Shown: positions 1,333-64,000 of the stretch, one piece after another
Numbering within the stretch: the stretch's first letter is position 1
Layout: every line of letters begins with the position of its first letter
DNA from: Strigops habroptila
Lineage: Eukaryota > Chordata > Aves > Psittaciformes > Psittacidae
DNA: 64,000 nucleotides
Assembly (NCBI RefSeq): GCF_004027225.2
Contig: NC_044282.2
Coordinates: forward strand, 74,348,287-74,412,286
Direction of reading: 5' to 3'
Notes under the pieces: generated by a model
Databases searched by the model: none
What the model was told of the DNA's origin: nothing
The model's input: the letters and a program-made list of their open reading frames with translations, nothing else
Translations under genes and position numbers: made by a program

Positions 1333-4300
1333 GTATAGGTAGAAGCTTTTTGCACCGTGATGTGACTATGTGTAACAGCAATTTCATGTAAATACTGGGT
1401 TTACTTATTTTTAAGTTATTCCACAAAAAGCAACTTTAATAAATTGAGTTGCAGTGCTAAAATGTTGCATAGTTTAATAACTGTAGTTATAAAATGTTTA
1501 CGGGTTTTTCCTACAGAGTGTTACCTAAGTAAAACTGGATTGGTTTGAAAAATACTTTAGTATATTTTACATATTTCAATAATCTTTTCACTTTATTTTA
1601 TTTTACATCTTCTTTTATGTCTCTGTGTATAGATACTACATCCTATGAAGATGTAAGTCCACAAGGTATTAGTGATGATTCTAGTACAGGATCAAGAGTT
1701 CATGGTAAGATGTGAATTTTAACTAGCTGAATTAAGGATATATTATGTGAATGTTAACCAAGTTTGCAAAGAAAAGTGAATGGCATGGTTAGGAGTGAGC
1801 ATGCTTTCTGCGATTTGCCTATCTCTTGAATGTGTAGTATCATTTCTTCAAATTGTTCTTTTCTTTCTTAACTACTACATCAGATGGTCTATAGCTCTAG
1901 TAGATGTTCTATCTCTCTAGTAGAAAGTATCTATGAAGTGCATCTGAACAGGATCAAAGCATCTTCTCTTTTAAGAAGTTATTTGGAGTTAATAGTAAAA
2001 GAAGTTATCATTTGAATCCTAAAAGACAGTTCAAACCCAAATCCAAATCTGGCCTGATTATTCAAACGTTTATTCTTCAGTGAAACCTAAATTTGTCATG
2101 TGCTGTGTTTCATAAAATCATTTCCTTCAAGCCAAGCTTGAAGTGAAAGCTATAATAGATTATGTAGAAGTGAAGCTTTAACTCTAAACAGTTACAATGA
2201 GCAGGAGCAACAAACAGGCCTTTCTGGGGACAGTAACAGCGCATTTCCTTGTGTTGCATAGGAGTGCACGCCGTTATCTGTGCAGATGCTCTTGCTCCTC
2301 CTGTTGGTGGCATTTCAACTATGTGCAAGGTTCCTTGTCAGATCTGTTGTAAGTGACCTGATCACCAGCTGCTTGCTGCATGCCCTTCACCTGCAAACCC
2401 TGGTTTCCCACTAACCAGCCTGTTTCAACTCTAAACATACACTCTCTTTCTCTATTTCTCTTTTCCTCTCCCTTGTACCTTTACTATTCCTGTAGTGCCC
2501 TTTCCTAAAGTGTCCTCTTGGGCTGCCTGGAAATCCCTTCGCTTTCTGATGTGTAAGAAACCACTTTGTTGGCAATGGGCATGCTCAGCCTGTGCAGTAG
2601 TGCATGATCCTGCCTCTGAGCATTCTGTGAGCAGAATGTGGAGGTACCGTGCCACCCGCTGAAACTTGGTTCCTCATCGTGTCTCCTCATTTCCCATTTA
2701 GCTTCCAGACCAGCCAGCCTTGATAGTGGCAGAACATCCACTAGCAATAGCAATAACAATGCTTCACTCCATGAAGTCAAAGGTATGCTGTAGGTGAATT
2801 CACATACGTGCTTCATGTCCATTGTTTTCTCTGTAAGGTCATCTATTATAGGTTAAAACAAGTAAAAAATAAAAGAATTCCCACTAAACACCACAGATTG
2901 ATTTTCTTTAAGTGTTTTATAGCCTTTATTCCTCAAAGTAGGAAAGGATACTTAATAGAACTTATTGTTTTTCATAAATATTAAAAGGGTGATATTAGTA
3001 CATAAGTTACAAACTATTGCAAACCAAACCTAACCCAAGGAAGAATGTTACAAAATAAGAATTACCCCAAATTACTTTAAAATGGCTCATTTGGAAGCAG
3101 CAAATTGCTCCATTATGGTTTTTTTCTCCTAGTATCTTAGTACATGTGTGCTGCTGTGGTAAAGCTGTGTGTGTGCCACACAAACTGGACAAAACGGCAG
3201 CTGAAATACCAACCTGTAAACATCTATGCTTTTGTTTTTAAAGGATGAATAATGTCCCTGGATGTATCAGTGTGCTCTACATTTCATATATGATCAGCCC
3301 TGATACATTTTTGGTTATGATGGAAATAATAATCTCTCGCTGGAGGCCATTGTACGTACTAGACTAGAATGCTGCCGACTCAAGACTTTGTTTAATATTA
3401 GTGGCTTGCATTTATTAAACAGTATCAGTTTGTTTGGAAACTCAGAGCTGAATGTCAGCTTGAGATTTGGATTAGTTTAATTAGTTTCTTAGTTTTATTA
3501 GTTTAATTTCTGTCTGTTCAATGATTCTTTGGGGTACTCCTCACCCCAGTTTCTATACAGTGTTGGAAATTTCTTTCTTCAAAGGTAATTTCATTTCTTG
3601 GGAGTAACGTGACATAGGAAATACTTGATAATTCAGCAATTCACAATTACTGAGAAATAGAAAGAATTGGTGCTGTGGAATTTATTTTCCATTGAATGTG
3701 CTTCCTTCAGGCCACAGTTGCCATAAACTAGAAGTAACAGCAGAAGCTGTGGGAGGAACAGCGTCTCTAAATGGTCCTCATTGAAGAACTGTGTTTAAGA
3801 AAACATTTTCTTTCCATTCCATGCTTTGTATTTCATTTAATGCAAACCCCATTACTGGTATATTAGAGCATGTGTCTCACAGTGATGCTGAGTAAGAATG
3901 AAGGCTCCTTTTTAGCCTCTTGGAATATGACGTTGCATAGATGGAGGCCCAGATTATAAGTGAGAGGTAGGGGTTGTATTCAGAAAACCACATGATGTGT
4001 AAAGAGCTGTAAGAGGTAAGTCAGGGGAGTGCAGTTGTGTTAATCTGTTTGGTTTGAGTAAGAAAGGGCAACTGGGTTTCGTATTTTAAACTGGATTTAG
4101 TGTTTTAAATGGAATTTGTTAACTTAATCTGATACTGTTCCAGATGTGAGTGTGGTCATACTGTTTAACAGCTCCCATGTATTCTTCTTACGGAATCACT
4201 GAATGCCATTTGCCCCAAAGCAGGTGCAGTTAACAATCAGAGCAGGCCCCAGAGCCACAGCAGCGGGGAGTTCAGCCTCCTGCACGAGCACGAGGCGTGG

Positions 4301-7300
4301 TCCAGCAGCAGCAGCAGCCCCATTCAGTACCTGAAGGGTCACACGAGGTCTAGCCCTGTGCTGCAGCAGCGAACACCCGAAACGCTGGATGCTCGTGGCA
4401 GACACATCAAAACGGGTTCCCCTGGAAGCGAGGTCGTGACCCTGCAGCAGTTTCTGGAAGAGAGCAACAAGAGTACCTCAAGTGAGGTTAGTTTAATGAA
4501 TGCTTTAACTACCTGTTATCCCATACATGGACACGGGGTTAATGGAAGACTTACAGTGAGGAGAACGCTGTAAAACTGTGTGGAGTTACTGGTTGCGTCT
4601 GCATTAAGGAGTAGCGTGGACTGTATCCAGATAAACTGCACTCACTGTATTACACACAAAATCATTTGGGATTTTGCAGCTTTAGCTGGGTTACTAAATT
4701 GGGTAGGAAAGTCAGTCTCTACTGCACAAAACTGCCCAGTGCATTGATGCCTGGTACACTCACCAGAGCTCAGGGGAAGGCCACAAACTCAGAGTAGGTT
4801 TACTTCCAGTGCAGCTCTTGTCCTCAGTAAGAGGACGATGCTTTGCTTCATTCCCTGAGGAGAGGCTCTTGTCTGCTTCAGTTCCATCATTTTAACTCCT
4901 GGGCAAAAAAAATTACCTTGGAGCTCATTGAAATCTGAGAGGAATAAGGCAAAGAGAATGTTTGTGTAAATCAGTGACAGTTTGTTAGAAGCCCAGAATC
5001 ACCTTGTCTCTGCAAGTATTCCAATTGCTTCATTACTAGTTCTTGAGTAAAGCTGTTCCAAAACCCAGCAGAGCTGTAGGATAACGCAAGCCTGTTACTG
5101 GCAGAGGAGCTTGTCACGAGGGAGGACCAGAATCCATCTGGTTTTAATGACACAGTTGGAAGTGAAAAACATACATTCACATCTGAATTGATTGGGTGAG
5201 GCCTGGGGTAGTGACTTGAGTCTGGAACTGAGTTTCTGGATTTTTTTGCTAGATACTTACAGTGACCTCTCACCCGTGGTCTCTCTGACAAGGAGTTTTG
5301 GGCTTTGAGCATAAGACAATACTCTTCTGGCAACAGAAACGACAGAAACCACCTGAGTCATCAGTCCATTGCTGTTCATGCATAACAGATCCCATTCATA
5401 GCATCACATCATCATTCAGGCTGCAAGGGGATCCAGGAGGTCTCTTTCCAGTCTTCTGTCAGTGTTATTTCCTTAATGCTTTTAGCTTAATCCTTCCCAA
5501 ATTGACTCTTTAAAGAAAAAACTGGGAACTGTCCAGGCCAGATGTAGGCATTGCAGGTGCCCAAAGGTTCAGTGCTTTGTATTGCTGTCAGAGATTTTTG
5601 TCTTTGTTATTTGAGTGAGGAGAGAATTTGAGCTTTCAGCTCCGGATGATTAGTTAAAGTAAGAGTGCACATGAAATGGCTCAGGAAGTATCAGTGCGTG
5701 ATGGCACAGGGCAGGTGAGTGAGAAGATAAACTTGGAGTTTTGACCATGTGATTTACAGAGTGAATCAGTATTGCAGAAGCTAACTCCAGATAGTTGTGC
5801 TCTGTCTGACACTGGTTTTCAAAGTACTTGTGAGCTGTACAGAAGACTCAGAGTATGTACCATAAATGCTTAATGCTGCTTTTAGATCTGAGAAATTAAA
5901 GTACTTTTAAGAATTGTTCTCCATTTATGTCCACAAAGATGGCCTAAGAAAAGGTGAGAATTACAGTGAATTCACGTTTCATATTTCTGACAGATGAAAT
6001 CAGCAAGTGAAGAGAATCTCTTAGATGAAGTGATGAGGAGCTTATCCGAGTCCTCGGAGCTGGCAGGGAAGGAGAAGCTGAGGAAGCAGCCGTCTGCCGG
6101 TTGTGGCATCGTGAGATCACTGAGTGTCAAAGCCACCATCGACTTCTCAGACGGACGATCCCTTAAGCCAGAGCAGCTGGTGAGGCCCAGCCTGCGGAAA
6201 AGCGACGATCCCACCTTCACTAGCTCTCCAGTGAAGTTGACAGGAGGCACCCAAGGGAAGGCCAAATCTGTTAAAGAAAAGCTCCAAGCGAGCGTTTCCC
6301 AGCGCCAATCCCGCGATTGCAATCCCTACGCCACCTTACCTCGCGCCAGCAGCGTCATCTCCACGGCAGAAGGAACCACCCGAAGGACAAGCATTCATGA
6401 TTTCTTGTCTAAGGACAGTAGGCAGCCTGTATCAGTGGATCCAGCACCAGCCACCGCTGACAGGAGCGTTCCATCGGCCTCTAGTGAGTACTCAGCACAC
6501 CGGTTACCCTCTCCTTTTGTTCACTGTGTGGCTTACAGAGTAGATTGTGTTCCACAGAGCAATGCAGCTAATGCAGTTAAACCCCGTAATGTAGGATGTC
6601 ACTCTGATGTGCCTAAAACTTCCAGGATGGAAAGGTCAAATTGTCGGGAGAGAACTTCGCTGAGCTCAAGTGTGTTTAATGATAAATTCTCTGGTAATAA
6701 CGACAGCACAGGGTCGCTCACTGTGGCTCAGCCATTTTTATCCCTTAACACTGAATTAGTTAGTAATATAAGTGGGTTGCCTCACAGACCTACATCCAAA
6801 CCAGCTGATCAGGCAAATCTGTCAGCGTTTAGATCAGTGCCAAAGAATCCAGAGCAGCTTTCTGCTCCCCAGGAACCTGATCGTAGTGAACTTGTTCCAG
6901 CCCCATGTGTGAACACCAGTGAGGCTGAATCCCCGCTGCTGGTTTCTGAAGATAACAAAACTGTGTGGTACGAGTATGGCTGTGTATGATAAGGAAGTTG
7001 TATTATTAAATCTATATATATATATATAGTCTCATACAACACATAGGTGTTCTGCTCAATGTCCACTGGATTTAGAGAAGATTTCACTCCAAGGACAAAA
7101 CAATTCCATGTTAGATCTGCGGGTGGATGTTTTCTAGAGCTCAGTCGTGTACTCCAGCATGTCTGAATGTATAATTGTAACCTCACCAAAGTCTGCATGA
7201 ACCATTAATTGCACTGTATATATTTTGCATGCCTTTAAAAGTCTTTATAATGCAAGCTATGGTTTTATTTGTCACGCATCACAGATACTTTGGTTTCTCC

Positions 7301-10300
7301 CTGTATGTTACCGAATGCATGTCAAACCAGTCGCATGCTGCACTGCCACAAATGGCACCAGGAGCAATTCCAATACAGAACCAGGACTTTTCAGCTGTGC
7401 TCGTGCTTTCAGATGTATCAGTAACACACTGAGTATGTATTTGGAGTAAAAATACTCCCCCCTCTTCTTGATTAAATGAGATATTAATGAAGAGAAGCGT
7501 TTAGAGAGATCCCAGTGTCTTACCTTTTCCATTTATGCCATGGTCTGGCATAAATGCACTTTGCACAAGGAACAGGTTACACCCCGTAATTCAGTGCCTC
7601 CAGCTTGCACAATAAATATGAATTACTGTTCATAGTTATTAAAATACTTGAACATTAATAATACAAAGACCATTCATAATCCTAAACGTGCTAAATCTTA
7701 CGAGGAGATGATAAATACTCGCATGATCCACAGCACTTGTAATGAAAAAATGACCCTTTCCACCTCTTGCCTTTTGTAAGCTTTGTCTCTCCACGCCTGG
7801 TGTACAACTGTGGTGAAGTGTATGGTTTGTTAGGAGTCAAATAACTGAGTTATAGGAGACTCCTTGTGATGTGTGGTAATAAAAACCTGTATTGATCGTG
7901 GTGGAAGCTCATTTTTTCTTCTGAACAGAAGTAACATTAATACAGTAATACAATAGAGAACAAGATGTGTAACAGGGATAACTGTTACATTGACACAGCT
8001 AAATAAAAGACACAATAACCAAAACATTGCTCGTAAGGTTATGTGAGTGTAGGGATGCTCAAGCAGATAACATTAAATCCCAGATGACCAACTAAAGAGA
8101 AATGCTGGGAAGGAATTACTTCATGTGCCACCATGTCTGCAATGGCTTGAAACGTCTCAGTGGTGAATATAAACAGTTTAAAATTGTATCATACTTAAAT
8201 TATAATTAATGAGGCTTCAGACATTAGCACTTTTTTGCCAGAGGCCATAGTCACCAGCAGTTATGGTGACCAGCATTATATATGCTATAGAAAACCTGAC
8301 TGACAATGTATCTAGAGGAGAAATACTTAAAATCTCAAATACTGAAAATAATGAATGCCATATTCTGATTTTTACATCTGAATCTCTTTTGCCAGCAGTT
8401 CTGTGGCACTCACGGTACTGCTGGGGCTTTAATTCCTGAGTGTTTCACTAGGGAAGGGCAACAAATTCACTGCTTTTTTGCGGAAAAGCAGCAGGCACAT
8501 CCCATATCTTAGTCTAGAAGGTCTCCATTTCAAGCATGAGAATTGTTAATAGAACACTGAGATAGCCCTTCCCAGAGCTCCAGCTCTATTCCAAGCTAGG
8601 GAAGAGGAACGGGGGGAGAAGTTTGGATGTTTCAAAGACGTTCCGTGGAGGGTGTAATGGCTGTTTCACAACGTGAAGCAGCCATCCTTCCCCATGGCTG
8701 CAAGCATCCCTTGTTACTGGGCTGATAAGTGTTGCTCGCAGCGAGCTGTCAGTTACTGCCGAGCTCCCTCTGGAATTGTCTCACTTAAAAAACCCACCCC
8801 CAAATCTGAAATAACCATCTGAATTTCACAGGCAGCAGAATCAGCGTGTGCTGATCTCTGGCCCTGTCACTCGACTTCATTTCTGTTAATCTCTCGATGT
8901 GTTGGAATTAGCTTTGAGGTGAACAGTGCTGAAGCGACGTGAGCATAACACATTCTGCAAGTTATTTAAGGCGTTATAGAGCTCTGAGAGTACTTATTAT
9001 AAACTCACACTGTGCTACCAGTATCTGTATCATTTGCTTAACCGATTGCAAGCCTGCATCTTGCAGCGAGGCTGCTTGGTAGGATAAGAACAAGGTTTGT
9101 AGCTCGAGGTAGTATCTCCTACTTAGATCAACAGCTGTTGTCCGAGACATCAGATAAGCTTTAGGGCATGATACTACCTCGTTTGCCAGCCTTGTCCTGC
9201 TTAGATCCTTGGGCTGTCACAGCTACAAACACCACCAGTATTGTCTCCAGATACATTATAAACCCTCCAGCACTGAGCTCTGACTGTAGCTGGGAGCAAG
9301 GCCAAGGTCTAAAGAGAAGTTGTAGAGCTCACCCCGTAGAGTGAAGGTAAAGCCTCTATCCAGGCACTGGGTGTGTTATTTCCAGCCCCTGCCCATGGGG
9401 CACTGCAGTTTCAACCATCTCATTTCTCTTCCCAGCACTGAGCTTTCCAAACAAACCAGGCCTGGGAGTGAATATTTATGCCTGACATTTAATGCCTTTT
9501 TAGCCTGTGTTTTACCTTACCCCATTGGGGCCAGCCTTAGAAGAGCTTCTCTCTTAAAGGGCTTCAGAATAACTGTCAGTGCCTTGGAACACGAGTGCCT
9601 CATGTCCTCTACAGGAGTTCTAGGCTCACCTTGTCCAGCTCAAGCTGCCATTTGGCGTGGTTTATAACCGTGTAATGAACTGCATTTCAGTTCTGAGAAC
9701 ACCAGCTTTCTGTGCTCCTGGGTTTGCTCCATTGAGTTCAGCACAGCAGCAGAAGCATGCTGCTAGAGAGTTTTTAGTGTCTCTGAATAATAAACTGTCA
9801 ACATTTCTTTATTATATATGAGAGAAAACAAATGTTTTCATGTACAGAAGGGTTATTTTTCCTCCCCTTTTTGCTCTTTAACAATAACATCGTGGATGTC
9901 TCTCTTGGTCTGTGCTCAAACAGTGGAAGGAGCTGTGAGGTTCCTTTCAGACCCAACCACTGCTGCTCCTCAGCCATGCACACGGTGCCCTTGCTCATTC
10001 CTTGGTCCCTGCTGCCTTTAAAACTGAAGAGTCAGGACTTTGCATGGTAACTACAAACACTAAGTAGGCGGCTGCTGGCCAGAAGAGGTTGTGTTGTTCA
10101 GGCTCAGTGATGTGCTTGCTGTTAAGGTTTGCTCGATGCTTTGCTTGAAGTGAATAGTGAATTAAGATCCTGCATTTTGCACGTTCAAGCTGTTGCATGC
10201 AAAGTTAATTCTGTGTTTTGCAGACCTGAATGTGAACGTTTCTGTCAGCGTGTAGCAGGTACAAACACAAAGATGAGTCGAGTCCTTGCTCTGCTGGGTT

Positions 10301-10703
10301 CAGTCAGCCTGGGTGACATCAGGTTGTGTTTATTTCCTTTTCATACAGGCATTTAGGGTTAGTGCACCTAAAAGTGACGTGTACCTGATTGTGGCTTTGA
10401 AAGCAATACCTGGTTATTCTGAATGCTAGGATGAATTGTAACAAGTGTGGTTGAGCAGGCACTTCCAGTGAGTTTCCTCCATCCCTCCTCTCTGTCCTTT
10501 CCTCTAAAACAAAACAAAAAAGGTGTTTAAGTATATCCTTTTGCTCTACTAATAAGTAGAATGTATTTTAATGCATGAGGGTTTATTTTTCATGTCCTGA
10601 TCAACACAATGAATAACATGAAATGCTTTTCTCTGCAGATGTGGAAGCTATCCCAGAAAGCAGAAATTCAAAAAGCAGGTCTAGGGAGCAACAAAGCTCC
10701 TAA
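1129..10703 (+). CDS. CCDC88A: CCDC88A (Girdin/GIV), C-terminal coding exons; gene starts left of the window
   Basis: Girdin is a large coiled-coil, actin- and membrane-associated scaffold that activates Galphai and PI3K-Akt signalling. Six in-frame exons with AG/GT borders are seen: 1129-1332, 1633-1704, 2702-2782, 4221-4486 (or from 4224), 5994-6483 and 10639-10703 (stop TAA 10701-10703). All junction phases agree. The translation follows mammalian Girdin closely: MNDLVQSMVLAGGQWTG, then RPASLDSGRTSTSNSNNNAS, then GSPGSEVVTLQQFLEESNK, then NPYATLPRASSVISTAEG, ending SRNSKSRSREQQSS. The fourth exon carries the Galphai-binding (GBA) motif VTLQQFLEESN. The N-terminal Hook-like domain and the coiled coil lie outside the window. 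Positions 1-1128 would be the preceding intron. This canonical form splices from a strong donor (CTA|GTGAGT, 6484) to a terminal exon 4.1 kb away. The identification is firm; exon borders are read by eye. Confidence 0.96.
1633..1704 (+). CDS. CCDC88A: CCDC88A 72-nt exon (DTTSYEDVSPQGISDDSS)
   Basis: A short symmetric exon (72 nt), flanked by 'gtgtatag' and 'gtaaga'. It encodes TTSYEDVSPQGISDDSSTGS, close to mammalian Girdin. Its length is a multiple of three and both neighbours are in the same phase, so skipping it would keep the frame. Confidence 0.94.
2702..2782 (+). CDS. CCDC88A: CCDC88A 81-nt exon (SRPASLDSGRTS...)
   Basis: A short symmetric exon (81 nt) between 'ttcccatttag' and 'gtatgc'. 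It encodes SRPASLDSGRTSTSNSNNNA followed by SLHEVK, nearly identical to mammalian Girdin. Confidence 0.95.
4221..4486 (+). CDS. CCDC88A: CCDC88A exon carrying the Galphai-binding (GBA) motif
   Basis: It encodes the SHSSGEFSLLHEHEAWSS region and then KTGSPGSEVVTLQQFLEESN (about 4411-4470). In mammals this second segment is the non-receptor GEF/GBA motif that contacts Galphai through the Phe of QQF. The acceptor is a tandem AAG-CAG: starting at 4221 gives K-A-G-A-V as in human Girdin, starting at 4224 drops one Ala. The donor is GTTAGT after 4486. A run of CAG codons at 4302-4317 encodes a short serine run. Both acceptors keep the frame. Confidence 0.95.
5994..6989 (+). CDS. CCDC88A: CCDC88A penultimate exon with read-through ORF; candidate alternative C-terminus ending GCV
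   Basis: 5994-6483 is the conserved penultimate exon (ENLLDEVMRSLSES, then NPYATLPRASSVIS, then RRTSIHDFLSKDS). The frame does not stop at the donor at 6484. It stays open another 168 codons to TGA at 6987-6989, adding a Ser/Pro/Asn-rich, probably disordered tail that ends TVWYEYGCV. Gly-Cys-Val is the C-terminal PDZ ligand known from the paralogue Daple. Poly(A) signals AATAAA at 7611, 7878 and 8002 could terminate a transcript that keeps this region, about 620-1020 nt beyond the stop. The conserved exon is certain. Use of the extension as a real isoform is inference, supported by the open frame, the ending and the poly(A) signals. Confidence 0.75.
   Translation: MKSASEENLLDEVMRSLSESSELAGKEKLRKQPSAGCGIVRSLSVKATIDFSDGRSLKPEQLVRPSLRKSDDPTFTSSPVKLTGGTQGKAKSVKEKLQASVSQRQSRDCNPYATLPRASSVISTAEGTTRRTSIHDFLSKDSRQPVSVDPAPATADRSVPSASSEYSAHRLPSPFVHCVAYRVDCVPQSNAANAVKPRNVGCHSDVPKTSRMERSNCRERTSLSSSVFNDKFSGNNDSTGSLTVAQPFLSLNTELVSNISGLPHRPTSKPADQANLSAFRSVPKNPEQLSAPQEPDRSELVPAPCVNTSEAESPLLVSEDNKTVWYEYGCV
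7611..8007 (+). terminator. CCDC88A: Cluster of AATAAA poly(A) signals in the last CCDC88A intron
   Basis: AATAAA occurs at 7611-7616, 7878-7883 and 8002-8007, within about 1 kb of the TGA that ends the read-through frame at 6989. They are suitably placed to end a transcript with the composite terminal exon. Signals of this kind also occur by chance in AT-rich introns. Confidence 0.4.
9090..9196 (+). ncRNA. Candidate microRNA-like hairpin with a let-7-type seed (GAGGTAG)
   Basis: CGAGGTAGTATC (9104-9115) is the exact reverse complement of GATACTACCTCG (9170-9181). Outside it, CAAGG (9091-9095) pairs with CCTTG (9190-9194). Inside it, CCTA/TAGG and CTTA/TAAG extend the stem towards the loop. 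The 5' arm contains GAGGTAG, the let-7 seed, but the bases after it differ from let-7. The hairpin lies in the last CCDC88A intron in the sense orientation. A 12-base inverted repeat alone could be chance in 64 kb; the extra pairing and the seed make it worth testing. Confidence 0.3.
10639..10703 (+). CDS. CCDC88A: CCDC88A canonical terminal coding exon
   Basis: The acceptor is 'ttttctctgcag' ending at 10638. Spliced to A of 6483 it reads NVEAIPESRNSKSRSREQQ then SS and TAA. The ending SRNSKSRSREQQSS is identical to the mammalian Girdin C-terminus. This form ends in Ser-Ser and lacks a Gly-Cys-Val ending. Confidence 0.95.
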
Positions 10704-20104: not shown

Positions 20105-20600
20105 AGGGCATAGAATCCCAGACTGGTTTGTGTTGGAAGGGACCTTAAAGCTGATCCAGTTCCAACCCCTGCCACGGGCAGGGACACCTTCCACTAGAGC
20201 AGGTTGCTCCAAGCCCCTGTGTCCAACCTGGCCTTGAACACTGCCAGGGATGGGGCAGCCACAGCTTCTCTGGGAAAAGTCTGTGCCAGCGCCTCAGCAC
20301 CCTCCCAGGGAAGAGCTTCTGCCTCAGAGCTCATCTCAATCTCCCCTCTGGCAGGTTAAAGCCATTCCCCTTGGCCTGTCCCTACAGGCCCTTGTCCAAA
20401 GCCCCTCTCCAGGTTTCCTGGAGCCCCTTTAGGCCCTGGAGCTGCTCTAAGGTCTCCCCTTCAGGAGCCTTCTCTTCTCCAGGCTGCCCCAGCCCAGCTC
20501 TCTCAGCCTGGCTCCAGAGCAGAGCTGCTCCAGCCCTCGCAGCAGCTCCGGGGCCTCCTCTGGCCTCAGTCAAGCAGCTCCACGTCCCTCTTGTGCTGTT
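20105..20600 (-). mobile_element. CR1 retroposon, 5'-truncated, minus orientation
   Basis: It begins with 'catagaatcccagactgg', the inverted CR1 3' end. Typical CR1 blocks follow: 'ggaagggaccttaaagctg', 'ccagttccaacccctgcca', 'ctccaagcccctgtgtcc', 'gggatggggcagccacag'. At about 0.5 kb it is one of the longest CR1 copies here. It lies directly upstream of the MTIF2 promoter, separated by the palindromic microsatellite. Confidence 0.9.
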
Positions 20601-20656
20601 GGACATTGCAAAGAAAAACTACCATCTCCTCGCAGGCAGGAGAAACCCACATTTAA

Positions 20657-20668
20657 GTGTGTGTGTGC

Positions 20669-20715
<47 letters not shown>

Positions 20716-20717
20716 TA
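20657..20717. repeat. Palindromic (GT)n(AT)n(AC)n microsatellite
   Basis: A GT run, then about 14 AT units, then an AC run. The GT and AC arms are complementary around the AT core, so the whole tract can form a cruciform. It is about 100 bp upstream of the MTIF2 CpG-island core. Confidence 0.9.
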
Positions 20718-20739
20718 TCGAGCTAACAGCTTGATAACC

Positions 20740-21250
20740 GCCCGCTCCCCGAGTCCTGTCAGGCGATTTCCCGCCTTCCGTGAGGAGAAGCGGCGCGCGC
20801 CGGCCGCCGCCACTGCGCATGCGCGGTGACTCTCGCGCCGCCGGGCGCCTGCGCAGTATCGCGGCCGAGCCCGGCGTCAGGCACCGCGGGTGAGGCGGGG
20901 CGGGCGGCCGTGGGGGTCCCGCAGCGGGACCGGGCGGGTCAGCGCTGTCCCGGGACGGGCTGCATTCTGCTCCCGGTCCCGGAGCCCCGGAGGAGGGCAT
21001 GAAGGGAGGCTGTGACCGCGGGGAGGGCAGCAGCTGGCCGGTCTGTGGAGCGGGTGCGCGGCGGTGCGGGGTAGTCCCGCTCGCAGCGGGTGTTGTGAGG
21101 CGCTGCTCGGGTCCTGCCCCTCAGGGCGGAGCGCGGGTTGTGAGGACGAAGGTTTGCGGAGCCGGGTGGCTGCTCTGCGGTAGTAGCCAAGGCAATGAGC
21201 ATAAGAGCTATCGGGGTGCGCCTGTCCCGGCGCTGCTGACCCCGGGAGCC
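20740..21250 (+). promoter_or_regulatory. MTIF2: MTIF2 CpG-island promoter with NRF1 site and noncoding exon 1
   Basis: TGCGCATGCGCGG at 20814-20826 matches the NRF1 consensus, and a second half-like site CCTGCGCAG lies near 20848. An E2F-like TTTCCCGCC is at about 20767. A good splice donor, CACCGCGG|GTGAGG, ends a noncoding first exon at 20889. The first coding exon has its own acceptor at 22267, so intron 1 is about 1.4 kb. NRF1 control is known for many nuclear genes of mitochondrial function, so the site fits the gene. The start site of transcription (about 20830-20870) is inferred. Confidence 0.75.
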
Positions 21251-22274
21251 GGGAGTGTTGCCGTGCTGTCAGCAGCCTCCCGTGGGTTTGTGCTCCGTGA
21301 GCTCGGCCTGGCTCGTCTTGACCTTGTGTTAGTTTTCTGCGTATGCAGCGTCTTGTGGGTTCCTTGGTTTTACCGGTTCTGCCCCTTTAAAGTTCTCTTT
21401 AGCGAGAAAAAAACCCAAAACCAAGTTGGTGTTGGTTGGTTAGTTGTCATCGCCTCACTTTGCAGGTATCTAGATACGAGATTAAAAGGGACCACAGTCG
21501 TTTTGAGAGGAACTGATAGCATTTTGCTCATTTGGAGCTGCTTGGAAAATGGTACAAAGCCGCCTTTGAGAGAAGGGATAGAAGGGATAGAGCATGGCAT
21601 CACTGAGCAGGGGGACAAAACAGCTCCGAGCAAGAAGAGAAGTTCAAACAGGAGGCTGTTGTATAGGATAGTTAACAAAATGGCCCAAGCCAGAGTTAAG
21701 GTGGTTAAAACAAGATGCGGGATGATCTGACAGAAGCATCTTGGAAAGCTTGGTTGCTAAGGCAGGGCTTAGCCTCAAAGGACATCTCTGTCCATGTGAC
21801 AGCACTGGTGTTACTACAGGGCTACAGTGTTTTAGTGGTGATATATGTTCTTGTAAGCAGCATACTGCAGATGTGTCTTACAGGCTCCGAGAGGTTTGCT
21901 GCACCTGGATAACTGTTGGTACAGCATGAGGAGTGCAAATGACCTTTTTTTTTTTTCTAGGTAGTGTCAAAGAAACTGAAATAGGGATTTTAATAGTTTC
22001 TATTAAAGATTGGTAAAGAAAGGTGAATGATTTGTAAGCTCTGGCAATATTAGTAGATGTGTCTGTCAGCAGTGGGGTAGTGGGGGAAAGTGAAGCACTG
22101 GAGAGAACTGAAAAACTGGAGCAGTTACTAAACAGATCAACTTTTTCAGCATTAAAAGGCCTGTTTTGAAACATAACACTCGTGCCCTGTGTTCCTGCCT
22201 GTATTATCACAGGGAAGAGTATCTTTCAGCTTTGAGTCTGATTTCAATGTGTCTTTTGTATTTGCAGTGAGGAG

Positions 22275-32480: not shown

Positions 32481-34604
<2,124 letters not shown>

Positions 34605-34678
34605 GGCGAGGCCGGCACCTGCGGCGGGGGACAAGGGGGAGCCGCGGCCACGCGTGCGGCGGCGGAGCGAGGCCTCAC

Positions 34679-34714
34679 CCGCGGCTTCCTGCCGGAATGG
34701 CGGCTCCGAGAGAA
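34679..34714 (-). other. RPS27A: RPS27A noncoding exon 1 with TOP-like start
   Basis: On the minus strand, a donor (GCGG|GTGAGG) ends this exon at 34679. Upstream lies a pyrimidine-rich TTCTCTC (near 34708-34715) suited to a 5' TOP start. GCCGCCATTCCGG just inside the exon resembles a YY1/ETS element, common in ribosomal-protein promoters. The 5' boundary is approximate. Confidence 0.55.
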
Positions 34715-34999
34715 CGCGGCGCCGGCACGCACGGGGTTCCTCTCGCCCGCGCCGAGGGGCGGGACTACATATCCCAGCATGCCCCGCCGGGGCCAGCCGC
34801 GCCGCGGGCTGCCGGGAGCCGCAGTCCAGGCCGAGGGGCACCATGGGAGTGGTAGGCGGGGCTGGGCGCGGCGGGAGCGCGGCTCCCACAGTGCACCGCG
34901 GCCGTGAGGGGAGGAGGAGGGCGGCGGTGAGGGGAAGAGGGAGGGAGTTGCTCTGTACATCAGAGCCGCGCCGGAGGAGGGGGTTGTGTGGGGAATGAG

Positions 35000-61400: not shown

Positions 61401-64000
61401 TTCTTCATTTTAATGGAACTCCAGGAAGCCTCCTCTGAACTGGATGGTACAAACATTTCAAATTACTCATTCAAATTCATGTTAGTCATTCAGTTTTAGC
61501 AAAATGATGTGGTTTTCAATATCCAGGGAACAATGAAGGGTATATATAATAATCTCTATTTGTTTAAAGATCACATTTCAGAGATGATCCCATCTTCACC
61601 TTGGAGTCACAGTCATGAGTCTGTGAACCATGCGAAGAAATAGGAAAATGAATGTGCTTATCTAAAAAACTTGTTTTCTTTGAGTGATAATGTCCTTGCG
61701 TCTGTCCTACTGTCAAAACCAGTGGACAACTTAGCAGAGGAATAACAATTGACATCCCAGGATTTGTGTTTGGGATGTTATTTCTGCAGAGCATCAGGAA
61801 ATTCCATAACAACTTCAGAAGACAGTTTATCGAAATAAAATTGGACTGTCCTGGATAAGTAAAGTGCCTCAGTTCGAGGGCCCTGTGCTGTAAAGCAGCC
61901 TGAATTAGCCTTGGTCTGATGAATGCATCACAGAATAGGTCTGTGACTCTCTTCACAAGATAACTTCTGTAAGTATTACTAGTAGAATGTTATATTCCCC
62001 ACATCCTGCTAAGGAAGAGTGGGACAGATGCTGCACATTTAAATCGTTGACACTTATCCCATCTGGTCAAATGGTAGTTTAAGAGATGGAAAAATAGAGG
62101 AGTGACACTGACAGGAAGAATTTCTATCCCAGTTTCTTTAGTCATGTGGCAGACGTGTTAGATGAACAAGCAGGGTGACATCCAGTGTGTTGGAAGGGCT
62201 GAGTTAGAGTTCCTGTTGTGCTCTGAAATCCATCACCTCCTCTACCAGGCAGTGTCTGATCCCTTCAGGCTGGCAAGCATGTAGCCAGCTAAATGTCATC
62301 TCTGTTGTGATGCTCAAACCACCCTCTTCACAGGCTTAGCTACCAAAATGCTAATACTATTTCTATAGTCTCCTAATGCAACTCCTTCCAAATGATCTTG
62401 GATCAAAAACGTCAGCTGCCGCTTGTGCCCTTGATCCTTGTGACTGTGGATAAATCTGTTTGCTCTCTTGTTTTGAGACTTAAAAACATGTGAATTTTGC
62501 CCTTGTTTAGCCTTTCTCTGTCTAGTGACTGTGAAGTCGAGCCCTTGGAAAGGACAGAGAAGAACAGCAGCAGCTTGGCTGTGAGACATCACTTTGGCTG
62601 GCAGTTTGTGAAAGAACACAGTCTGTTGACTGGTAGTGATATAAATATTCAGGACTGGATTGACAGTATGCAGGACATAAGCCTGCTGGGAATAGCGAAA
62701 TTGAGACGTGACTTCTTTCCTCCTTTTGTGCTCCTTTTGGGAAGGCATGAAGGGTGGCCAGCAACAAGTTTCTTTCCTTCCCAAGATAAGGACAAGTAGA
62801 CCTGAGCTGCGAGGAGTTGTTGGTATTGTTTTCCACTTGGTTTCAACTTCTGCAAACAAAGCTAGAGCTGGTAAGTGAATATGGTTTAGAGAGCTTGCTG
62901 GACCCTCCCAAAAGTGCTGAGTCTCAAGGCTGCTCTTGCTTCTAGGCTGCATAAATGACAGAGCACTTTGGTGTTGGCTACATCAGGCCTTTTCTATTGC
63001 AGTTCACCTCATTGCCTATCAGTGTGAGGCTTGATGTGAAAGATAATTTCAGTGCTGGTGAAGAAGCAGCTCTCAGTGACACTTAAGGGGCTGCATTTAA
63101 AACCTAATTAATACAGTGACATCAGTACTGAGGAACGTTACTTGCAGTCAAATGTGGCCAGAGAGACCAATGCTTCTACTCTGAGATATAACCATTAAGA
63201 AAAACAAGCTTTAAATGGCTGTCTAGTATGCATATCCCCAGAATGTTGAATTGACCAGTAGAGCCCTTTTTAACTTACCTGCTTTTGGGTCAGATAAAAC
63301 CAGTGTGATTGTTCAGAAGCACTCACAATATCCAGGTGGGATGAATACTAGAGCCAAGAAGCTGCAATTCTGCTTATTGACAGACCTAAACCTGTGTTAG
63401 GTGTGAGAGTTGCCCCAATAACGTAGAGTAGGACCTAGATCTGTTTATCTGTATTGTGTGGGTATATGTGAAGCAGAACTATTTCATCTATGTGTTTACA
63501 TGTATGCCCTTTATTTCCCCTTGTCTTTTGGGGCATTTTTGTGTATGCAGCAGGAGTGCACCAGAGGTGAGCTCTGAAAATTGTTGGGTGATCTGCAGGC
63601 AAAAAGCATAGGAGGGGAAAGGCATGAAAGCAAAACTACCAGATTATGAAAGGCAACCAGGACTGACTTTCTGCTTTGTTCTTATTGACACGTGCTGTTT
63701 CTACTTCACATTCTTACGTTGCTGAGAAACGCTGTCATCTGCAAACAAAAACAGCTCATGCGGTATAGAGCCGAGTGTGTGCAGAATGTAAAGAGGGAGG
63801 TATCTGCAGCCAGCCCACAAGAGCTTGTCACGTTATTTCCATGCACACAAAAGGTTACTTACTTCTTGGCACCAGATTTACCACCCTGCAGTTAATGGAT
63901 TTTATGGCAGGAAGTTTCTCTGAAGACTTGATTCCCATATTCTTAAGTAGTAAATAAAAAGTTGTGAATTATGTTCCAAAGCATCAGTCAGTATTGTATT
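58450..64000. other. Intergenic, nothing recognised
   Basis: AT-rich. The longest open frame (62314-62952, minus, 212 codons) matches no family I recognise and is listed as a finding. No RNA gene or mobile element is supported. Confidence 0.5.

What the first reader, a model, noticed from the sequence alone, without database searches (positions are those of the whole stretch)
6484..6989. Alternative Girdin C-terminus ending in a Daple-type Gly-Cys-Val PDZ ligand
The frame of the conserved CCDC88A penultimate exon continues 168 codons past a strong splice donor without a stop, and ends TVWYEYGCV. By a simple random model that is unlikely (below 0.1 percent for one given frame). Daple (CCDC88C) is known to bind Dishevelled PDZ domains through a C-terminal Gly-Cys-Val; the standard mammalian Girdin ends in Ser-Ser without it. 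Poly(A) signals at 7611, 7878 and 8002 would allow a composite terminal exon. The inference is that birds may make two Girdins, one of them able to reach Daple-type PDZ partners, and that the tail is ancestral to the Girdin-Daple pair.
Basis: partly seen in the sequence, partly recalled or inferred. Interest (0 to 1): 0.8.

Follow-up and report, generated by a model that had tools for sequence, protein, structure and literature searches.

The report
Long Girdin tail with PDZ ligand
This stretch is the bird version of a known long form of the cell-scaffold protein Girdin, made when the last splice is skipped, so the finding is real but already described in other vertebrates.

Summary
The frame of the penultimate CCDC88A exon runs past the donor at 6483/6484 for 168 codons (counting the one split by the junction) and ends WYEYGCV, stop TGA 6987-6989. 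The alternative splice to 10639 gives the ordinary Girdin end...SREQQSS (stop 10701-10703). The tail is coding by conservation: of 112 distinct proteins from two database searches, 69 read through and reach W[YF]E[YF]GC, 24 carry the spliced short end, 19 do neither. Named long forms, over three searches, come from a shorebird, turtle, Komodo dragon, camel, whale, human, frogs and teleosts. This is not new: Ear et al. 2021 (PMC8042451) describe it as GIV-L. The intron after exon 31 of CCDC88A is left unspliced, adds about 150 residues and ends in an EYGCV-type PDZ-binding motif, which is also in worm and fly Girdin. It binds Dvl and ParD3 and directs Girdin to junctions. One item I did not find in that paper's main text: a second conserved island, PFLSLNTELVSNISGLP (residues 247-263), in 68 of 69 long forms, function unknown. 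I had no transcript or dN/dS data.

The parts
5991..6483 (+). penultimate coding exon of CCDC88A (counterpart of human exon 31 by the description of Ear et al.), shared by both forms
   Evidence: tblastn with grey whale Girdin P0087 (5991-6986, 52%) and chimpanzee CCDC88A P0092 (5991-6485, 62%)
6483..6491 (+). alternative splice donor A|GTGAGTAC, which also encodes Ser-Glu-Tyr when read through
   Evidence: sequence; Glu-Tyr found within 20-65 residues after STAEG in 69 of 69 long forms
6484..6989 (+). long-form (GIV-L) tail with stop codon TGA 6987-6989
   Evidence: open frame; tail identity 28-84% to the 66 long forms
6729..6782 (+). second conserved island QPFLSLNTELVSNISGLP in the tail, function unknown
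   Evidence: coordinates; conservation
6945..6986 (+). SEDNKTVWYEYGCV: C-terminal PDZ-binding motif with its flank
   Evidence: coordinates; W, Y, E, Y, G and C each 98% or more; last residue V in 67 and I in 2 of 69
7611..8007 (+). three AATAAA signals (7611, 7878, 8002) that could end the long transcript
   Evidence: exact matches; use not shown
10639..10703 (+). terminal coding exon of the short form, NVEAIPESRNSKSRSREQQSS and stop TAA
   Evidence: join of 5994-6483 with 10639-10703; same end in bird records P0089 and P0132 named girdin-like
4424..4462 (+). GSEVVTLQQFLEE, the G-protein-binding (GBA/GEM) motif of Girdin, upstream of both ends
   Evidence: coordinates; aligned to mammalian Girdin; which letters form the motif is recalled

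Best explanation
The stretch is the coding part of the long terminal exon of CCDC88A in a bird and makes the bird form of GIV-L. When the donor at 6483/6484 is used, the exon joins 10639 and Girdin ends SREQQSS. When it is not used, and a poly(A) site in the intron (probably one of 7611, 7878 or 8002) ends the transcript, the protein gains 168 residues (counting the one at the junction) and a C-terminal WYEYGCV. That end binds PDZ proteins such as Dishevelled and ParD3 and holds Girdin at cell-cell junctions. Shown here: both frames, both ends, and their conservation. Shown in human or zebrafish by others: transcript, PDZ binding, junction localisation. Inferred for this bird: that the transcript is made, which poly(A) site is used, and that the tail binds the same partners.
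For: Open frame and two ends in the window. Of 112 distinct proteins, 69 are long, 24 short and 19 neither. Named long forms include Limosa P0002, and human P0126, chimpanzee P0127, turtle P0134 and Komodo dragon P0135. Glu-Tyr follows the core in 69 of 69 long forms and an Asn stands at the junction in 24 of 24 short forms, so the split-codon design is old. [quoted passage not shown] The 2024 review PMC10943482 reports it too (passages).
Against: I had no RNA data for any bird. Many of the matching proteins are predictions from unnamed assemblies, and such predictions favour open frames. Of the 19 'neither', 7 lack the exon core, but others read on without GCV: P0038 ends early in a mammal-like tail, P0086 (eel Synaphobranchus) keeps the island and lacks GCV, and P0101-P0105 (teleost paralogs by similarity; P0105 is Boreogadus) end in other residues. 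So the motif is missing in places.
Confidence: 0.93

Rival explanations
1. The open frame is a chance run into intron, with no protein made.
For: The window holds other stop-free runs of 150 codons or more, and the six of them scanned had no Pfam match; no transcript evidence was available.
Against: The same frame, with two conserved islands, occurs in birds, reptiles, mammals, frogs and teleosts, and human cells make it (PMC8042451).
Confidence: 0.02
2. The window is CCDC88C (Daple), so a GCV end is the ordinary end of that gene.
For: Daple is known to end in a PDZ-binding motif that binds Dvl (PMC4484057 and PMC6702192, passages).
Against: Five upstream exons and the shared exon match mammalian Girdin/CCDC88A at 52-96%, the short end matches bird girdin-like records, and the best-named hit is Girdin. 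No Daple tail was compared.
Confidence: 0.01
3. The long transcript is made mainly as a regulatory unspliced or early-polyadenylated RNA that lowers the short form, and the tail protein is secondary.
For: The donor's exon side is weak (CTA|GTGAGT), which would suit regulated skipping; poly(A) signals lie just downstream.
Against: A purely regulatory role would not keep the protein ends WYEYGCV and PFLSLN..LVSNISG; GIV-L protein was stained in human colon with an isoform-specific antibody (PMC8042451 section 11 passage).
Confidence: 0.04

Closest known systems
GIV-L, the long isoform of CCDC88A/Girdin (Ear et al. 2021, PMC8042451)
   Same: Same gene, same unspliced intron after the penultimate coding exon, same tail length class (about 150 versus 168 residues), same EYGCV-type end, GBA motif upstream.
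   Different: Described in human cells and zebrafish; the words chicken, bird and avian do not occur in its main text. Human and chimpanzee records P0126 and P0127 end GCI, this one GCV.
Daple (CCDC88C) C-terminal PDZ-binding motif
   Same: PMC8042451 calls the two motifs highly conserved in sequence and reports that both bind Dvl and ParD3 (passages).
   Different: A different gene; there all C-terminal transcripts contain the motif (PMC6702192 passages). Whether the rest of the tail is shared was not tested.
Invertebrate Girdin (C. elegans GRDN-1, Drosophila Girdin)
   Same: C-terminal EYGCV motif, according to PMC8042451 section 4.
   Different: No GBA motif and no extended C-terminal region, according to PMC8042451 and PMC10943482. 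I compared no sequence named as invertebrate.

Membership tests
GIV-L isoform of CCDC88A | the gene is CCDC88A | tested here: met
   stretches at 26-109, 1128-1331, 1602-1706, 2701-2784, 4217-4489 and 5991-6986 match mammalian Girdin/CCDC88A at 52-96%; best-named hit is girdin isoform x1 of a bird
GIV-L isoform of CCDC88A | reading frame continues past the exon-31 donor for about 150 residues | tested here: met
   168 codons without a stop
GIV-L isoform of CCDC88A | C-terminal PDZ-binding motif EYGCV | tested here: met
   ends WYEYGCV, stop TGA
GIV-L isoform of CCDC88A | G-protein-binding GEM/GBA motif upstream | tested here: met
   GSEVVTLQQFLEE at 4424-4462; which letters form the motif is recalled
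GIV-L isoform of CCDC88A | a transcript lacking the splice | not testable with these tools
   no RNA data held
GIV-L isoform of CCDC88A | binds Dvl and ParD3 PDZ domains, sits at junctions | not testable with these tools
   binding shown for human and zebrafish proteins, localisation for human, by others (PMC8042451)
Daple (CCDC88C) | the gene is CCDC88C | tested here: inconclusive
   in the listings (the last shows 120 of 223) one record is named 88C, fish P0203, and it lacks this part; no Daple tail was obtained for comparison
Daple (CCDC88C) | homology of the tail beyond the last residues | not tested
   the search of the own genome for other WYEYGCV ends did not complete

The most novel reading that the evidence does not exclude
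The long tail carries a second ligand besides the PDZ motif: the island PFLSLNxxLVSNISGxP, kept through tetrapods and teleosts. It may bind a second partner, so that GIV-L bridges a PDZ protein and something else at junctions. The weak exon side of the donor, fixed by the Ser/Asn split codon, keeps both forms in play across bony vertebrates.
Probability: 0.35. Interest if true: 0.4.

Novelty: already known. Interest (0 to 1): 0.17.

Why it matters
It extends a recently described Girdin form to a bird, and shows that both C-termini are kept side by side in the bony vertebrates sampled. That makes Girdin's role at junctions, and its overlap with Daple, something testable in chick embryos. The second conserved island gives a concrete peptide to test for a further partner.

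Tried and rejected
Chance open frame: rejected on conservation. Pfam and PDB sequence searches with the 331-residue frame gave only noise (a fungal family at E 0.045; a DegP-like protein at E 0.47). A structure prediction on alignment A1 (the window frame and 28 hand-picked proteins of the 86) gave mean pLDDT 48.8, pTM 0.17 and no helix or strand in the tail: the tail is probably disordered, so I ran no fold search. A third protein search with part of the coiled coil of P0087, meant to bring in Daple and sharks, listed 120 of 223 matches. Of its 109 new proteins, 5 were long, 7 short and 97 neither; 89 of the 97 lack the exon core, and the 8 with it include a red-deer record cut off inside the motif (P0199), two carp-family records with a short-like end (P0139, P0140) and three paralogs with other ends (P0158, P0165, P0190). 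It gave no Daple tail, and the two shark records (P0204, P0218) lack the exon core. dN/dS was not done: I had no other bird's DNA. Of the 66 long forms, 8 run on past GCV or GCI (P0005, P0007, P0009, P0010, P0058, P0060, P0065, P0067), all with Trp next, most simply a TGA stop read as Trp by the gene predictor; I took them as ending there and did not pursue readthrough. The first join of the short end used 10640 and gave a wrong frame; it was corrected to 10639. A paper search with four terms at once found none; a looser one found the GIV-L paper. A search for any three of Girdin, GIV-L, chicken and PDZ-binding motif listed only that paper.

Full report
What is in the sequence. On the + strand the frame of an exon beginning after 5990 stays open to 6986 (332 codons) and ends SEDNKTVWYEYGCV before TGA. 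It passes a splice donor, CTA|GTGAGTAC, at 6483/6484. Using that donor with the acceptor before 10639 gives ...SASNVEAIPESRNSKSRSREQQSS and TAA at 10701-10703. Five upstream stretches in the window match mammalian Girdin, including the G-protein-binding stretch at 4424-4462 (which letters form it is recalled). The window lies in a 1.15-Gb assembly of 89 contigs, in which this frame found one place, 12 candidates scored. The closest named relative of the frame is a shorebird Girdin, 82% identical, so a bird is the likely source.

Is it more than chance. A 168-codon open frame arose in 1 of 4000 simulations from a model of the tail itself and in 0 of 4000 in each of five others. The window has several other long open runs, so this is supporting evidence only. 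The case rests on relatives. The first protein search returned 86 proteins. The second, with an alignment of the window frame and 28 of those 86, returned 112 at E up to 1. The session then held 112 distinct proteins, which I sorted: 69 long with W[YF]E[YF]GC, 24 short ending as SREQQSS or a variant, 19 neither. Of these 19, seven lack the exon core, five (P0101-P0105) resemble a teleost paralog and have another end, and the other seven stop or diverge in the core, soon after it, or in the tail. Among those seven, P0086 keeps the island without GCV and P0038 ends early in the tail. Identity to the 66 long forms is 44-88% in the exon part and 28-84% in the tail. In the tail, conservation sits in three places: Ser-Glu-Tyr at the donor, an island at residues 247-263, and the last 13 residues. 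Predicted proteins are biased towards open frames; the islands are not explained by that bias.

The donor. Read through, the donor bases encode Ser-Glu-Tyr, and Glu-Tyr is found within 20-65 residues after STAEG in 69 of 69 long forms. Spliced, the split codon becomes Asn, in 24 of 24 short forms. This double use probably holds the base before the junction at A, a poor base for a donor; that is inference from protein sequences, as I saw no DNA but the window's. It would help to explain why the site can be skipped in so many animals.

What is known. Ear et al. 2021 (PMC8042451; I read the outline, sections 4, 5 and 13, and passages) found this form by comparing the EYGCV end of worm and fly Girdin with vertebrate transcripts. 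They report that the intron after exon 31 encodes it, that three of five human cell lines named in section 5 show it by RT-PCR, that it binds ParD3 and Dvl through the motif, goes to junctions, and falls in colon adenomas. They propose that the PDZ motif is older than the G-protein motif. A review (PMC10943482, passages) repeats this. The finding is therefore a correct rediscovery in a bird genome.

What is left over. The island PFLSLNTELVSNISGLP is kept, allowing small changes, in 68 of 69 long forms: 65 by a core pattern and P0029, P0032 and P0082 by near variants judged by eye; P0085 has lost part of it. Its letters do not occur in the main text of Ear et al.; figures and supplements were not seen. 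It may be a second short ligand. Teleost proteins such as P0101 keep parts of the tail but end DKPLTIA or similar, which fits with PMC8042451's choice of the zebrafish copy that has both motifs (section 4). I could not test whether Daple has the island, because the genome search did not complete for that question.

On recounting, I changed the lower bound of exon identity from 43% to 44%, corrected where the antibody staining was done (colon tissue), and added the proteins that read on without GCV.

Noticed in passing
window 6729-6782: Second conserved island QPFLSLNTELVSNISGLP in the GIV-L tail, in 68 of 69 long forms; its letters are not in the main text of the GIV-L paper.
   Followed up: partly
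proteins P0101-P0105, P0158, P0165, P0190: Girdin paralogs of teleost type (P0165 is named 88Aa) read on past the exon core but lack GCV; seven of the eight end DKPLTIA-like and P0105 otherwise, a likely loss of the PDZ motif after duplication.
   Followed up: partly
proteins P0126, P0127, P0021: Human and chimpanzee long forms end WYEYGCI, not GCV; P0021, an unnamed cluster of 18, does too.
   Followed up: no
proteins P0005, P0007, P0009, P0010, P0058, P0060, P0065, P0067: These database proteins continue past GCV or GCI, each with Trp next, which looks like TGA read as Trp by the predictor.
   Followed up: no
protein P0059: Record named Lampetra planeri is close to teleost Girdin sequences in the alignment by eye; possibly mislabelled or contaminating.
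   Followed up: no
window 20155-20826, 20894-21727, 34273-34995 (+), 62317-62982 (-): Other stop-free runs of 222-278 codons without a Pfam match; not identified.
   Followed up: no
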